Of a stretch of DNA of 40,866 bases, positions 3,195 through 7,051 are shown one piece after another (the first letter of the stretch is position 1; every line of letters begins with the position of its first letter). Location of the stretch: contig JAIDOW010000051.1 of assembly GCA_029063085.1 (NCBI GenBank), forward strand, positions 1-40,866, in the 5' to 3' direction. This stretch comes from Lachnospiraceae bacterium. Its GTDB lineage: Bacteria; Bacillota; Clostridia; Lachnospirales; Lachnospiraceae. Position numbers and translations under genes: made by a program. A model generated the notes under the pieces. It did no database searches, had not been told where the DNA came from, and saw nothing but the letters and a program-made list of their open reading frames with translations.

Positions 3195-3863
3195 TTACTC
3201 TCCCTCATCAAAAAGCGAAAAATCCCGCTGAACTCTGATTGGTATGTCGCCAAGTTTACCCTTTAACTGCTCTTCCATCTCTTTTGAAAAAGACTTTAAT
3301 GCCTTCTGTTTTTCAACTTCATGCTCTTTATTAACATAACTGCCATTTTCATCAAATTCACTTTGTGTACCAATTCTTAATACAATTGCATTTATTTCTA
3401 CAAAATCACCATTATTATCGTAAAGTGTTTTTATCTCTTTATCTGCCGGGCTTTCTACTGGCTTATATGCAATCACATCTGCAAATGTTTGCACAATTAC
3501 ATCCATTACATCTTCAGAAATCATACCGTCTTCCATATGCTCTGCTTCTCTTTGCAAAAGTTCGGTCTGTGCCCTGGTCAAACGCTCCAAATGCAGCTCA
3601 TTGCGGAGATAGATATAAGTCAATCCGAATCTGTCATTTTTTTGTGGCTCGCTTTTACTTTCCTCCTCATTAGGAATATATCTCATATCACTCTCTGATA
3701 GATCCTTATCATATTGTCCCAGTTCCAACGTATCCAATAAGTATCTGCTAAGTCCAATTCTATAAAGTTCTTCCATACTCCGTTGTGCCTCCCTTGTTTT
3801 ACATCCGCTAAATATTGTAATCATAAATATAAATAAAATTAAAATCTTATATATTTTTTTCAT
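3195..3863 (-). CDS. Small lipoprotein, possible partner or immunity protein
   Basis: This 222-residue protein starts with a hydrophobic segment followed by FSG-C, a lipobox with Cys21 as the acylation site. It should be anchored on the outer face of the membrane. The rest is hydrophilic, charged and rich in Glu/Lys helices, and I recognise no family. It starts 14 bases after the stop of the cysteine-peptidase-like gene, so the two are almost surely one transcript. A surface lipoprotein made with a secreted putative toxin could be its immunity protein or a secretion helper. That is inferred from position only. Confidence 0.7.
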   Translation of the reverse strand: MKKIYKILILFIFMITIFSGCKTREAQRSMEELYRIGLSRYLLDTLELGQYDKDLSESDMRYIPNEEESKSEPQKNDRFGLTYIYLRNELHLERLTRAQTELLQREAEHMEDGMISEDVMDVIVQTFADVIAYKPVESPADKEIKTLYDNNGDFVEINAIVLRIGTQSEFDENGSYVNKEHEVEKQKALKSFSKEMEEQLKGKLGDIPIRVQRDFSLFDEGE

Positions 3864-3877
3864 AATAAATTCCCTGC

Positions 3878-4873
3878 TTAATATATTATCTGTTGAAACT
3901 GCATCCTATCATATACGGAATCTCCCGACTTAATATAATACTCTTCGCCCCATGAAGATACTCTGTACATCCCATCATCTGTCTTACCTGTAACAGTCAT
4001 TGCATGACCTCCATCAATATCAACTGCTTTATTCCCTGATTCATCATATAAAATACACGGTTGTACTCCAACTACTATATCCCCTTTGGAAGCAACTTCA
4101 TCATAATTTTCCGGCGTAACTTTCACATTTTTCACATCCACATCTATTCCATGATCCGCCATATACTTTTCCCATCTGTATTCACGTTTTTTTCTAGTTG
4201 TGCCTCTTCCTTCCGTAGCTGATTTATCCTCAGATTCATCTATCACATCTTTCCTAAATATCAGACCTTTTTCATTATGATTATCTGTAGCCGCATAAAA
4301 ATCTGTTACCATTGCATCATAATTTAAATCTCCGTTTTTATCATACATCGGAAATCCAAATGTTTTCTCAAATTCTTTCTCTTTTCCCACAAATTGTGCG
4401 AAGATAGTATTACTCATGGCAACATAACCACATCCCTCCGACTCTAATTTTTTTAAATAATCCTCCACTTCTTTATCTGTAAAATCCGGATAATATTTTC
4501 TGACGATATCAGCTAATTCCTCACTTTTTGTTACTGGATTACTCTGATTTCCTCCATAAGAACCTTCTTCATCAAATGCCGGATTTCCCTGTTCTATGTT
4601 TTGATTAGAAATTATCTTTTCTGTGTTTATATAATTTGAAGAGATTTCAGATAATACTCTCTTTGCAGACTTTATACTATTTATAATATTCTCCATTTCC
4701 TCAGAAGTTAATTTCAAACTGTTTTTAACACTATTTCCTGCGGATCCCGATAATATAAGGGACTGTCTGATCTTTTCTAATGACTCTTTATTGCCATTCA
4801 GTACACTTGTAATTGATTGCAAATTCTCTGCTTCCTTTGACAACTTTATTGGCTGCACACTAAAAACTGACAT
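3878..4873 (-). CDS. WXG100/T7SS-like N-terminus fused to papain-like cysteine peptidase domain
   Basis: The protein has 331 residues and no signal peptide. Residues 1-95 are alpha-helical and rich in Ser/Asn/Lys, like the small helical-hairpin domain of type VII secreted proteins of Firmicutes; no clear WXG is visible. A linker (95-115) leads to a C-terminal domain. It carries a GCGYVAMSN motif (Cys148), GGHAMTV (His290) and SSWGEEYYI (306-314). These match the Cys, His and Asn/Trp-Gly blocks of papain-like or C39-like peptidases, with Ser in place of the usual Asn before Trp-Gly. AAAGGAGG precedes the ATG. The lipoprotein gene follows 14 bases downstream. It could be a T7SS effector toxin or a surface hydrolase. 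The catalytic motif is seen; secretion route and target are inferred. Confidence 0.6.
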   Translation of the reverse strand: MSVFSVQPIKLSKEAENLQSITSVLNGNKESLEKIRQSLILSGSAGNSVKNSLKLTSEEMENIINSIKSAKRVLSEISSNYINTEKIISNQNIEQGNPAFDEEGSYGGNQSNPVTKSEELADIVRKYYPDFTDKEVEDYLKKLESEGCGYVAMSNTIFAQFVGKEKEFEKTFGFPMYDKNGDLNYDAMVTDFYAATDNHNEKGLIFRKDVIDESEDKSATEGRGTTRKKREYRWEKYMADHGIDVDVKNVKVTPENYDEVASKGDIVVGVQPCILYDESGNKAVDIDGGHAMTVTGKTDDGMYRVSSWGEEYYIKSGDSVYDRMQFQQIIY

Positions 4874-5020: not shown

Positions 5021-5055
5021 AGAAACAGCCACAAAATATTTAATGCGGCTGTTTC
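5021..5055 (-). terminator. Hairpin at the end of the reverse transcriptase gene
   Basis: AGAAACAGCC (5021-5030) and GGCTGTTTCT (5046-5055) form a perfect 10-bp stem that overlaps the last codons and stop of the RT gene. On the minus strand it is followed by only a weak T-rich tract, so termination may be partial. Confidence 0.5.
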
Positions 5056-6260
5056 TTTCTATCTCTTTTACTTTGATAATATTCATATACCAGATTCCGA
5101 TATCCCCACTCCTTCATCTGCTCATAGGTAATACGGTAATTTCCTTTATAATGCCTCCCTGTCACACAATAGCGGATATACTGCTGCAAATATGCATCAA
5201 TTTCTTTTAAACCCACATCCGTTGTCAAATTTGGGAAAAACCAACGGCTCCAGGAAAATTCTGTTCCTTCTCCGCCATCAAATAATATATGGTTCATAGC
5301 TTTAATAAATCCTTTTGCCGCTTTCTCCCCGGATAATCCCTTTTCTGCCTGCCAGCGTCTTAATGCATGTGCTTTCCGTTTTATTTTTCCCTTTATCTTG
5401 CATTTCGTATTTTCCGATAAATCCACTTTTCCATTCCTGTAGCAAAAACCGAGAAACTCCCATTCCTCACCAGGACTGCTTATTTTGACTTTTGCAGGAT
5501 TTAGCAACAGATGATTATCCTGAATCCTGTCATATAACTCTTTCTGGAAGCAGCAGAGTTCTTCCTTTGTATCTGCAAAGATTAAGATATCATCTGAATA
5601 ACGGAAATACAAAACTTCTTTTTCGGCAAAATACTGGTCCAACTCCATCAAATACACATTGGCCAAAAAAGGAGAGACCGGTATTCCTGCCATGGCACCT
5701 CTTTTTTCCGTAATCGTCTCCCCGTTCCAATATGCCTGATCTGCTGTCAGAAGTTTCTCAAACAGCAAAAACAAGCCTTTGTCGTTTTCCTTTAAAAATT
5801 CCAGCTTTTCCAGCAAAAGTCCCACATGAATAGAATTAAAATAATTGCTGATATCTGACTTTAGACAATATTTCCATGAAATTTTCTTTGTCATACGGAT
5901 TCTTCTTATCGCATCGCCCGCTCCATAATTTCTGCGAAAGGCATAACAGTTGTATTCAAATATATCATCATAACGGTATAACAAATAGGCTGTCATTTTT
6001 AACAGAATATTAAATTCCACAGGATAGGAATATACCACACGCTTTTTAGAAATACCTTTTTTATTGATCTCTCTTTTTACAGGAATCGGAGGACAAAACG
6101 CAGGATTTTTCATATCCTGAAGCAATGGGATATAAGTCTCATTATCTATAAAACTTTCTAATTCCTTTTGCTCTGCCTTTGATAAATGCCTCTTCTCCAT
6201 TTTGTATTTCAAAAAATCCCGCCATGTATCCCGGTCCATCATTTTATCCAATATTTCCAT
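5040..6260 (-). CDS. Stand-alone reverse transcriptase (non-intron, unassigned group)
   Basis: The 406-residue protein carries the RT blocks in order: motif 1 PVKREINKKGISKKRVVYS (about 60-78), motif 2 CYAFRRNYGAGDAIRRI, motif 3 LKSDISNYFNSI with catalytic Asp136, motif 4 AGIPVSPFLANVY, motif 5 YFRYSDDILIF with Asp223/Asp224, and motif 7 WEFLGFCY. A basic region (KGKIKRKAHALRRW) and a C-terminal helical part (about 340-395) follow. There is no HNH, maturase or group II intron ribozyme evidence. The retron VTG after motif 5 is absent; a VTG occurs only near the C-terminus. The ATG at 6260 has GAGGAG about ten bases upstream. In-frame ATG 6278 and TTG 6293 are alternatives, and 6278 overlaps the stop of an upstream 40-codon ORF. 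The region upstream is highly structured, as in retrons and defence-associated RTs. Template and function are unknown. Confidence 0.85.
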   Translation of the reverse strand: MEILDKMMDRDTWRDFLKYKMEKRHLSKAEQKELESFIDNETYIPLLQDMKNPAFCPPIPVKREINKKGISKKRVVYSYPVEFNILLKMTAYLLYRYDDIFEYNCYAFRRNYGAGDAIRRIRMTKKISWKYCLKSDISNYFNSIHVGLLLEKLEFLKENDKGLFLLFEKLLTADQAYWNGETITEKRGAMAGIPVSPFLANVYLMELDQYFAEKEVLYFRYSDDILIFADTKEELCCFQKELYDRIQDNHLLLNPAKVKISSPGEEWEFLGFCYRNGKVDLSENTKCKIKGKIKRKAHALRRWQAEKGLSGEKAAKGFIKAMNHILFDGGEGTEFSWSRWFFPNLTTDVGLKEIDAYLQQYIRYCVTGRHYKGNYRITYEQMKEWGYRNLVYEYYQSKRDRKKQPH

Positions 6261-6274
6261 ATCAGGCTTTCTCC

Positions 6275-6397
6275 TCATATTGATAGTAAACAATCCTGCA
6301 GCATAGACAGGATATTCGACTTTTCCAGCTTGTTCCTGGGATACTCATAAACTCTGGAAAAGTCAAATATCCGCATTAGTGCAACTGCTTGGCTCAT
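6275..6397 (-). CDS. Possible 40-residue leader ORF coupled to the RT gene
   Basis: An ATG at 6397 opens a 40-codon frame that begins MSQAVALMRIFDFSRV. Its TGA overlaps the ATG at 6278 of the RT frame (ATGA). No good ribosome site precedes it. The 18-bp hairpin (6311-6371) lies wholly inside it. It may be a true leader peptide, or the sequence may be a structured RNA that happens to stay open. A second frame, opened by ATG 6404, encodes only 13 codons. Confidence 0.3.
   Translation of the reverse strand: MSQAVALMRIFDFSRVYEYPRNKLEKSNILSMLQDCLLSI
6311..6371 (-). ncRNA. Strong hairpin just upstream of the reverse transcriptase
   Basis: GATATTCGACTTTTCCAG (6311-6328) pairs with CTGGAAAAGTCAAATATC (6354-6371). 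This is an 18-bp stem with one G-U pair in RNA and a 25-base loop. It has no T-tract, so it does not look like a terminator. It lies 50 bases before the RT start, on the same strand, where RT-linked non-coding RNAs often sit. Confidence 0.5.
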
Positions 6398-6412
6398 TGC
6401 TCATGGAAATAA

Positions 6413-6557
6413 AAAAAGAAAGAGAAATTACTTTGAAGGAATCAAAGCAATGCTTGATTCTACCAGACTGAACATATCCCGGTCACCTGCAAAACCTACA
6501 CAAGAATATGCTTCATCCACCACAGGTACAGCAACCGCTGCATTTCTCTTTCTTTTT
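6413..6557 (-). ncRNA. Inverted-repeat-bounded 145-base element, candidate RT-associated RNA
   Basis: A perfect 16-bp inverted repeat, AAAAAGAAAGAGAAAT (6413-6428) and its complement (6542-6557), encloses 113 bases. Inside is a 7-bp hairpin GAATCAA/TTGATTC (6439-6460). On the minus strand the second arm runs into a T-tract, so it could also end a transcript. The layout of an IR-flanked stretch followed by an RT gene on the same strand resembles retron or DRT non-coding RNA. One minus-strand frame stays open for 53 codons (6431-6589) and reads protein-like (for example AVAVPVVDEAYSCVGF), so a gene remnant is the rival reading. Confidence 0.4.
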
Positions 6558-6640
6558 AACAAAAATATATACAATTTTGCCGATACGTTTTAATAATCTG
6601 CCTTTCACAACCTCTTAAAATTACAGGCACTATTTCATTA

Positions 6641-7051
6641 TCATACCAGCTGTTCCCTAATTCTCTGCTCCATATAAGTTTCTTCATTTGGCAGATAATT
6701 AAAGAAATCTATCATTTTAACATGGTTATTGGCACAAAAATCTTTAATCTGACGGTTTGCTGCTCTGGCATAGTCTGAATAAAAGTCCCACAGCCTTATA
6801 AGCAGAATCCTGTTACCACCCTGATATATTCCATAGGTAATTTTATCCGGATTACAGCGGTTCCCTCCACGGGTATATATCTCCTGTCCAAATTCCTGCT
6901 CTAATGTATCTGGTAATATATTTTTTCTAAGTTCATAATCCCCTGCATTTTGTAAAACAACCTGAAGCTTTTCTTCAAAGCTTCTCTTGTCCGATGCTGC
7001 ATTACCAAATACCCTGATTCTTTTATTCAGTAATTTGTCAAACAGTCCCAT
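6641..7051 (-). CDS. Small hypothetical cytosolic protein
   Basis: The protein has 136 residues, starting at MGLFDKLLNKRIRVFG. The start is set by AAGGGGG seven bases before ATG 7051; an earlier in-frame ATG at 7093 lacks such a site. There is no signal peptide or membrane helix. The middle part (TYGIYQGGNRILLIRLWDFY) looks like a beta-rich core, and the C-terminus is acidic and helical. I do not recognise the family. The gene lies 66 bases after valS on the same strand and may be read through from it. It lies upstream of the RT region, but nothing ties it to the RT. Confidence 0.65.
   Translation of the reverse strand: MGLFDKLLNKRIRVFGNAASDKRSFEEKLQVVLQNAGDYELRKNILPDTLEQEFGQEIYTRGGNRCNPDKITYGIYQGGNRILLIRLWDFYSDYARAANRQIKDFCANNHVKMIDFFNYLPNEETYMEQRIREQLV

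What the first reader, a model, noticed from the sequence alone, without database searches (positions are those of the whole stretch)
5040..6600. Stand-alone reverse transcriptase with a highly structured upstream region: candidate new RT system
The RT has an intact active site (Asp136, YSDD) but no intron maturase/HNH domain and no clear retron VTG. The 300 bases before it, on the same strand, hold a 145-base element bounded by a perfect 16-bp inverted repeat and an 18-bp hairpin. Known retrons, DRT and some unassigned RT groups share this plan: a non-coding RNA template followed by an RT gene. Defence or other host function is inference.
Basis: partly seen in the sequence, partly recalled or inferred. 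Interest (0 to 1): 0.8.

Follow-up and report, generated by a model that had tools for sequence, protein, structure and literature searches.

The report
Three-part reverse transcriptase system with RNA
A bacterial reverse transcriptase of a catalogued but little-studied family sits behind a knotted RNA and, usually, a small partner protein, which together look like a self-contained DNA-writing, probably virus-defence, device.

Summary
In detail: the RT (likely start 6260, stop 5040, minus strand) is intact, and the 145-base element 6413-6557 with a perfect 16-bp inverted repeat is as described. It is not a new RT group. The RT is RT_UG26 (PADLOC 534 bits, next 117) and the element holds Rfam RT-5 RNA. 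Among 397 same-family genomes, RT-5 was found in 32 of the 36 with the RT and none of the other 361. New here: a closing stem outside the Rfam model; a 6-bp pseudoknot, 100% paired in 30 aligned RNAs with double changes in all six pairs; and a third gene (6641-7051) directly 5' of the RNA in 29 of 38 loci, resembling a degenerate PD-(D/E)XK/DUF2726 domain. One same-genus genome lacks the cassette at this site. Best reading: a UG/DRT-type RT-RNA complex making RNA-templated DNA with a partner protein. Template, primer, product and defence role are inferred; the DRT10-like A-B-A' test was inconclusive. The second hairpin (6310-6372) is not part of the conserved element.

The parts
6641..7051 (-). 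Companion gene, 136 aa from ATG 7051: N-terminal helix (low confidence), then a degenerate PD-(D/E)XK/DUF2726-like domain
   Evidence: Profile found in 30 of 41 oriented contig stretches; directly 5' of the RNA in 29 of 38 RNA-bearing loci, between RNA and RT in one more; pS 0.82, pN 0.23 against L003; hhalign to DUF2726 probability 90.7; AlphaFold2 mean pLDDT 74.3, first 20 residues about 45
6564..6593 (-). Promoter-like hexamers TTAAAA-18-TATATT just 5' of the RNA
   Evidence: Consensus match only, 9 of 12; such matches abut the RNA in 11 of 38 loci against 6 of 262 shifted control positions
6413..6557 (-). Non-coding RNA element: Rfam RT-5 core plus the closing stem P1
   Evidence: Perfect 16-bp arms; P1 of at least 7 pairs in 38 of 38 folded loci, window included
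6424..6531 (-). Stretch matched by Rfam RF03026 (RT-5)
   Evidence: 63.3 bits, gathering 45.7
6522..6527 (-). Pseudoknot 5' strand (ACCUGU)
   Evidence: All six pairs show double changes; 100% of cells paired in 30 RNAs; position read
6485..6490 (-). Pseudoknot 3' strand (GCAGGU) in the P3b loop
   Evidence: position read
6439..6460 (-). P4 stem-loop, immediately 5' of the candidate template segment
   Evidence: Pairs as stated in the fold; pairs in the corresponding region in 38 of 38 folds (at least 5 in 37). In the constrained fold the window's P4 3' arm pairs instead with the next segment
6429..6438 (-). J4/1 segment CUUCAAAGUA, single-stranded by comparison with relatives: candidate template loop (inferred)
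   Evidence: Position comparable to the DRT10 template loop, just 3' of a stem-loop (PMC12632851 section 8); alternative pairing; A-B-A' tests inconclusive
5040..6260 (-). UG26 reverse transcriptase, 406 aa from ATG 6260
   Evidence: PADLOC RT_UG26 E 3.4e-161; RVT_1 E 1.5e-26; AlphaFold2 mean pLDDT 87.3

Best explanation
This is a three-part cassette: companion protein, RT-5 RNA, UG26 RT. It works like the class 2 UG/DRT systems. Shown: the parts recur together on one strand; the RNA has a closing stem, a long imperfect stem-loop tied back by a pseudoknot, and a second stem-loop; the cassette is absent at this site in one same-genus genome. Inferred: the three parts are usually transcribed together; the RT binds the RNA and copies a short segment (my first candidate is the stretch after stem P4) into DNA, priming from its own C-terminal region (candidate Tyr379, invariant in 32 of 32 aligned RTs) or from the RNA end; the DNA or its complex acts, probably in phage defence, through or under control of the companion, whose fold looks nuclease-like but lacks the catalytic set and so probably binds rather than cuts, possibly at the membrane through its N-terminal helix.
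For: RT family: RT_UG26 534 bits, then UG27 117, UG17 (DRT10) 102, Drt9 79. RNA: RF03026; found in 32 of 36 RT-bearing genomes and 0 of 361 others, with Infernal's stricter filters; pseudoknot search plus hand correction found the element in two more, G332 and G301. Covariation: 92.7% of cells paired against 74.0% shuffled, score 0.663 against 0.280; pseudoknot 100%. Companion: 17 of 200 genomes hit, 16 of them RT carriers; the 17th is a DUF2726 protein. Operon sign, grouped after seeing the data: promoter-like matches abut the RNA in 6 of 8 loci without the companion directly upstream and 5 of 29 with it, Fisher p 0.004. Site without the cassette in G188, and companion-RNA-RT alone in L003. 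Fold search: DRT9 at rank 6, E 5.1e-15, behind group II RT structures. In print: DRT10 (PMC12632851, sections 4, 7-10) and DRT9 (PMC12483538, PMC12489045, passages) are RNA-templated and protein-primed.
Against: No RNA, cDNA or phage data. The window neighbours I scanned are a symporter and proteins without Pfam match, next to ValS, not a defence island; island enrichment was not tested. The companion is missing in 7 of 38 RNA-bearing loci, one more being unresolved at a contig edge. A DRT10-like A-B-A' template is not shown, and the candidate segment can pair with P4 in one fold. Two divergent RT carriers (G193, G293; 32-33% identity, G293 also UG26 by PADLOC) have no recognisable RT-5 RNA. 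Viral UG26-like RTs show neither RNA nor companion, though only three of six contigs reach far upstream. The companion fold rests on a modest model and weak structural matches, none with E at or below 0.001 and unrelated folds among them.
Confidence: 0.62

Rival explanations
1. It works specifically like DRT10/telomerase: an A-B-A' template in J4/1 is copied over and over into tandem-repeat DNA.
For: The candidate segment lies just 3' of a stem-loop, as in DRT10; some RNAs carry long direct repeats there, e.g. L070 TTCTTTC-AAAG-TTCTTTC, L098 CTGTT-AAATT-CTGTT, L077 CTTTT-AAGC-CTTTT. Summed match length exceeds within-subtype permutations in some settings (p 0.004 to 0.05).
Against: Across all RNAs the repeats are no commoner than composition gives (p 0.12 in the first test; 0.05 to 0.98 over later settings). 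Twelve settings were tried after the first test, uncorrected.
Confidence: 0.25
2. A retron-like device: P1 acts like the retron a1/a2 repeats (recalled) and the RT makes a discrete RNA-linked DNA.
For: Stem-bounded RNA 5' of a compact RT.
Against: NCBIfam retron_St85 60.8 bits against cut-off 235; PADLOC assigns UG26; VTG not conserved.
Confidence: 0.1
3. The RNA is a cis-acting leader that controls the RT gene, not a template.
For: It lies 5' of the RT on the same strand in the loci where both were placed on one contig.
Against: Distance to the RT varies from about 25 to over 600 bases, and in L084 the companion gene lies between them; a pseudoknotted RNA tied to one RT family resembles known templates (inference).
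Confidence: 0.12
4. A decayed group II intron or other ordinary retroelement RT.
For: Group II RTs are the best solved-structure matches of the RT model.
Against: TIGR04416 119.9 bits against cut-off 300, while ten other RTs, one from the same genome, score 389-453; no intron family reaches threshold in the window; tree split 100/94.
Confidence: 0.03

Closest known systems
RT_UG26 (PADLOC, listed under DRT)
   Same: 534-bit match over nearly the whole protein
   Different: A catalogue entry; the one paper found that holds 'UG26' and 'reverse transcriptase' is a cold-seep virus survey (PMC10504277, passages), whose two passages name no RNA or companion
RT-5 RNA (Rfam RF03026)
   Same: Above the gathering score in the window and in 31 of 397 genomes of the family, window's included
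   Different: The Rfam consensus line shows neither the closing stem P1 nor the pseudoknot; the tie to UG26 is made here
DRT10 (UG17 RT + ncRNA + SLATT protein)
   Same: RT, ncRNA and a small partner protein; UG17 is the third-best DRT model
   Different: Different RT group; the partner looks like a nuclease fold, not SLATT; tandem-repeat template not shown
DRT9 (UG28 RT + ncRNA)
   Same: Multi-stem ncRNA; the RT fold matches DRT9 at E 5.1e-15
   Different: No invariant poly-U tract in the aligned RNA; Drt9 model scores only 79 bits
DUF2726 domains (PD-(D/E)XK type, recalled)
   Same: Profile match 90.7% against 0-0.3% for 12 column-shuffled controls; helix-strand order fits
   Different: The Asp and Glu of the DUF2726 pattern (DF...IELD) are not conserved in the companion

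Membership tests
UG26 RT | Best and near full-length match to the RT_UG26 profile | tested here: met
   534.3 bits, profile 1-397 of 398; next model 116.7
RT-5 RNA (RF03026) | Covariance-model score over gathering threshold, full length | tested here: met
   63.3 against 45.7, model 1-104 of 104
DRT / class 2 UG system | ncRNA-templated cDNA synthesis | not testable with these tools
   Needs RIP-seq and DNA sequencing
DRT / class 2 UG system | Protection against phage | not testable with these tools
   Inferred from family and patchy distribution only (36 of 397 genomes)
DRT10 | RT of group UG17 | tested here: not met
   UG17 101.5 bits against UG26 534.3
DRT10 | SLATT-domain partner | tested here: not met
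   No SLATT hit among the six window proteins given to Pfam or 23 companion proteins; other neighbours of relatives were not scanned
DRT10 | A-B-A' pattern in the template loop | tested here: inconclusive
DRT9 | Conserved poly-U template tract | tested here: not met
   No invariant U tract in the 30-RNA alignment, which ends about 10 bases into the P1 3' arm; U runs after P1 occur in many loci but not in L074 or L076
Group II intron | Maturase-type RT and intron ribozyme | tested here: not met
   119.9 against cut-off 300; only RVT_1 in Pfam; no intron family in the Rfam scan
Retron | Retron RT family | tested here: not met
   retron_St85 60.8 against 235; msr/msd layout not tested
Diversity-generating retroelement | Template and variable repeats | not tested
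   Only the RT was compared: it lies apart from one DGR RT in the tree
DUF2726 (companion) | Pfam match | tested here: not met
   Not among the families hit by 23 members at E up to 1; only profile-profile similarity

The most novel reading that the evidence does not exclude
UG26, RT-5 RNA and the companion form an uncharacterised tripartite DNA-writing immune system in which a pseudoknotted RNA templates repetitive DNA, and the DNA is read by a catalytically dead, possibly membrane-tethered nuclease-fold protein that stands where DRT10 has its SLATT partner.
Probability: 0.3. Interest if true: 0.78.

Novelty: new variant of a known kind. Interest (0 to 1): 0.52.

Why it matters
It gives a little-studied UG group a defined, testable unit: which RNA, where it begins and ends, which pairs hold it, and which third protein to include. 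A trial of the RT alone, or of RT plus RNA, could miss function if the companion is needed. If the partner senses or is controlled by the DNA product, it bears on a question that the DRT10 authors call unanswered: how the product contributes to defence (PMC12632851, section 10).

Tried and rejected
A-B-A' template search: anchored at J4/1; first test sum 134 against permuted mean 127.8, p 0.12 (within subtype 0.046), with the window's own anchor misplaced. After correcting it, 12 settings gave, for the summed match length, p 0.05 to 0.98 across all RNAs and 0.004 to 0.20 within subtypes, and for the number of RNAs with repeats of 4 or more, 0.13 to 0.56 and 0.02 to 0.30. Inconclusive.

DRT2-like concatemer reading frame: 31 of 38 loci allow an open frame over 187 boundary choices against 24.0 expected for shuffles; too permissive to mean anything.

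The variable bulge L3 as template: 1 to 16 nt in 38 folds, with large inserts in some loci; disfavoured, not excluded.

The second hairpin 6310-6372 as part of the system: rejected, since the RNA-to-RT gap is too short to hold it in several relatives (e.g. G109, G238). It has one copy in the genome, so it is not a dispersed repeat either.

Wider searches: genome contigs gave 2 loci. The viral single-protein scan found no relative; the alignment scan gave 8, of which 6 match well. Phage and plasmid matches are all under 60% identity. In 299 genomes of the phylum the UG26 model passed E 1e-30 in 47, but only the window and G180 scored above 140 bits; 7 of the others' RTs were checked and are group II. 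UG27 search of 199 genomes found none, and nothing rang in the controls. The UG17 model hit 35 of 199 genomes; 2 of those RTs were checked, both group II, so no confirmed DRT10 or DRT9 sequence entered the tree, and closeness to them rests on profile and fold scores. DUF2726 was chosen for comparison by eye; DUF559 was fetched but not compared.

Rows left out: companion alignment 23 of 24 (L079, fusion, left out); RT alignment 32 of 33 prepared (L081 left out), with several further loci lacking a clean ORF call and L101's RT in two pieces; RNA alignment 30 of 38 (8 left out, chiefly for long loop inserts). Promoter table leaves out L069 (contig edge).

Full report
What is there. On the minus strand the window reads valS (9787-7118, named by eye), a small gene (7051-6641), a structured RNA (6557-6413), an RT (6260-5040), three genes without Pfam matches (4873-3878, 3863-3195, 2990-1854) and a sodium:solute symporter (1674-139).

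What the RT is. PADLOC's RT_UG26 profile matches over positions 1-397 of 398 at 534 bits; the next models are UG27 (117), a generic RT model, and UG17, which is DRT10 (102). All 32 aligned RTs match the UG26 model at E 1e-10 or better. It is no group II maturase: 119.9 bits against a cut-off of 300, where ten other RTs, including the second RT of the same genome (contig C54), score 389-453. A tree of 52 RTs parts 32 UG26 and 5 viral rows, with one long-branch phage RT (L172), from ten group II RTs, one DGR RT, one retron-type RT and two further RTs at 100/94; UG26 against viral is weaker, 78/93. The AlphaFold2 model (mean pLDDT 87.3) matches group II RTs first and DRT9 at rank 6 (E 5.1e-15).

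What the RNA is. The core 6424-6531 is Rfam RT-5. In 397 genomes of the family, 36 carry the RT at E 1e-50 or better and 32 carry RT-5 at E 0.001 or better, 31 of them over the cut-off; comparing the lists, all 32 are among the 36. A pseudoknot search plus hand correction placed the RNA in 38 loci, including G332 and G301 that Rfam missed, but not in G193 and G293, the most divergent. In that search strands were chosen for complementarity, so its counts are biased; the fairer test is the MAFFT alignment of 30 RNAs: 26 pairs, 92.7% of cells paired (74.0% shuffled), 22 pairs with double changes, score 0.663 (0.280 shuffled; at most 0.164 when slid), and the pseudoknot 100% paired with double changes in all six pairs. 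The inner 3 bp of hairpin P3b are paired in 38 of 38. The Rfam consensus line leaves the pseudoknot columns unpaired and stops short of P1. Such models do not encode pseudoknots (recalled), and the RNA discovery paper, named from memory, was not held, so I cannot say whether its authors saw it.

The third gene. A cluster of small upstream ORFs was found in 24 loci and a profile raised this to 30 of 41 oriented stretches, 29 directly 5' of the RNA and one (L084) between RNA and RT. Of the 38 RNA-bearing loci, 7 lack it and one (L069) is cut by a contig end. Against L003 the window copy shows pN 0.23 and pS 0.82, so it is a protein under constraint. In 200 genomes it hits 17, of which 16 carry the RT; at least one RT carrier there, G004, has no hit; the 17th is a protein that Pfam calls DUF2726. 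No Pfam family fits (scattered single weak hits) and PDB sequence matches are weak and unrelated (best E 0.089, histones). Its C-terminal domain aligns with DUF2726 over 61 columns at 90.7% (E 1.3e-6 for one comparison) against 0-0.3% in 12 shuffles; the model (mean pLDDT 74.3) gives helix-strand-helix-strand-strand-helix-strand-helix; the weak structural matches include EcoT38I, VRR_NUC and TnsA nucleases beside unrelated folds, none significant (best E 0.11). Nuclease-like fold, active site not conserved: likely, not proven.

Operon and mobility. Promoter-like matches sit just 5' of the RNA in 11 of 38 loci against 6 of 262 shifted positions, which fall partly in genes. They occur in 6 of 8 loci where the companion is not directly upstream but in 5 of 29 where it is (p 0.004; grouping made after seeing the data, some loci are sisters). 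This suggests the RNA is usually made from the companion's transcript and has its own promoter when the companion is not upstream. A same-genus genome (G188) has a different ORF between valS and the symporter; the goat MAG L003 has companion-RNA-RT there; the window has these plus three genes.

How it may work. Read: DRT10 and DRT9 RTs use an ncRNA template and prime from their own residues (PMC12632851 sections 4, 7-10; PMC12483538 and PMC12489045 passages); class 2 DRTs are described as RNA-templated (PMC13174585, start of abstract in listings). By analogy the segment 6429-6438, just 3' of stem-loop P4, is my first candidate template and Tyr379 a candidate primer. Both are guesses: the A-B-A' test did not settle it, and one constrained fold of the window pairs that segment with P4's 3' arm, while the fold does not.

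What is in print, as far as searched: 'UG26' with 'reverse transcriptase' gave one paper, a viral survey (passages); 'RF03026', 'RT-5 RNA' and 'RT-5 motif' gave none; in a wider search, 40 of 151 papers were listed and I saw only titles and starts of abstracts. The UG/Abi classification paper (named from memory) is not held, so earlier mention there or in preprints is possible.

Verdict. A real, conserved, three-part system built on a catalogued RT group and a catalogued RNA; the linkage, pseudoknot, closing stem and companion are the new parts. Function is inferred.

Noticed in passing
L099:4385-8197: A UG26-like RT (33% identical) is the C-terminal part of one 1271-aa open frame with Radical_SAM_N2 and Radical_SAM domains: an apparent radical-SAM/RT fusion in genome G193.
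   Followed up: partly
L103-L108: Six viral contigs carry UG26-like RTs (31-36% identity; two tested, both UG26 by PADLOC). No RT-5 RNA or companion found, but only L104-L106 reach far upstream; after the RT no ORF over 110 aa begins on that strand for about 320-750 bases.
   Followed up: partly
window 3195-4873: Between RT and symporter lie a 331-aa protein with no Pfam match, whose ends look by eye like a WXG100-type N-terminus and a cysteine-peptidase-like C-terminus, and a lipoprotein-like 222-aa protein; not in the L003 cassette.
   Followed up: no
window 6310-6372: Near-perfect 19-nt-arm hairpin between RNA and RT, single copy in the genome, not followed by a T-run; some relatives have other hairpins there, a few terminator-like by eye.
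   Followed up: partly
L084: Gene order differs: RNA, then companion, then RT, with a strong promoter-like match before the RNA.
   Followed up: no
L072, L080, L096: The P3 bulge region holds large inserts, in L072 a repeated stretch of over 30 bases, so this site tolerates insertions.
   Followed up: no
L079: Companion domain is fused behind an N-terminal part with paired cysteines (zinc-ribbon-like by eye), 293 aa in all.
   Followed up: no
L003:5553-5624: The pseudoknot 5' strand sequence and its complement occur a second time inside the P3 loop.
   Followed up: no
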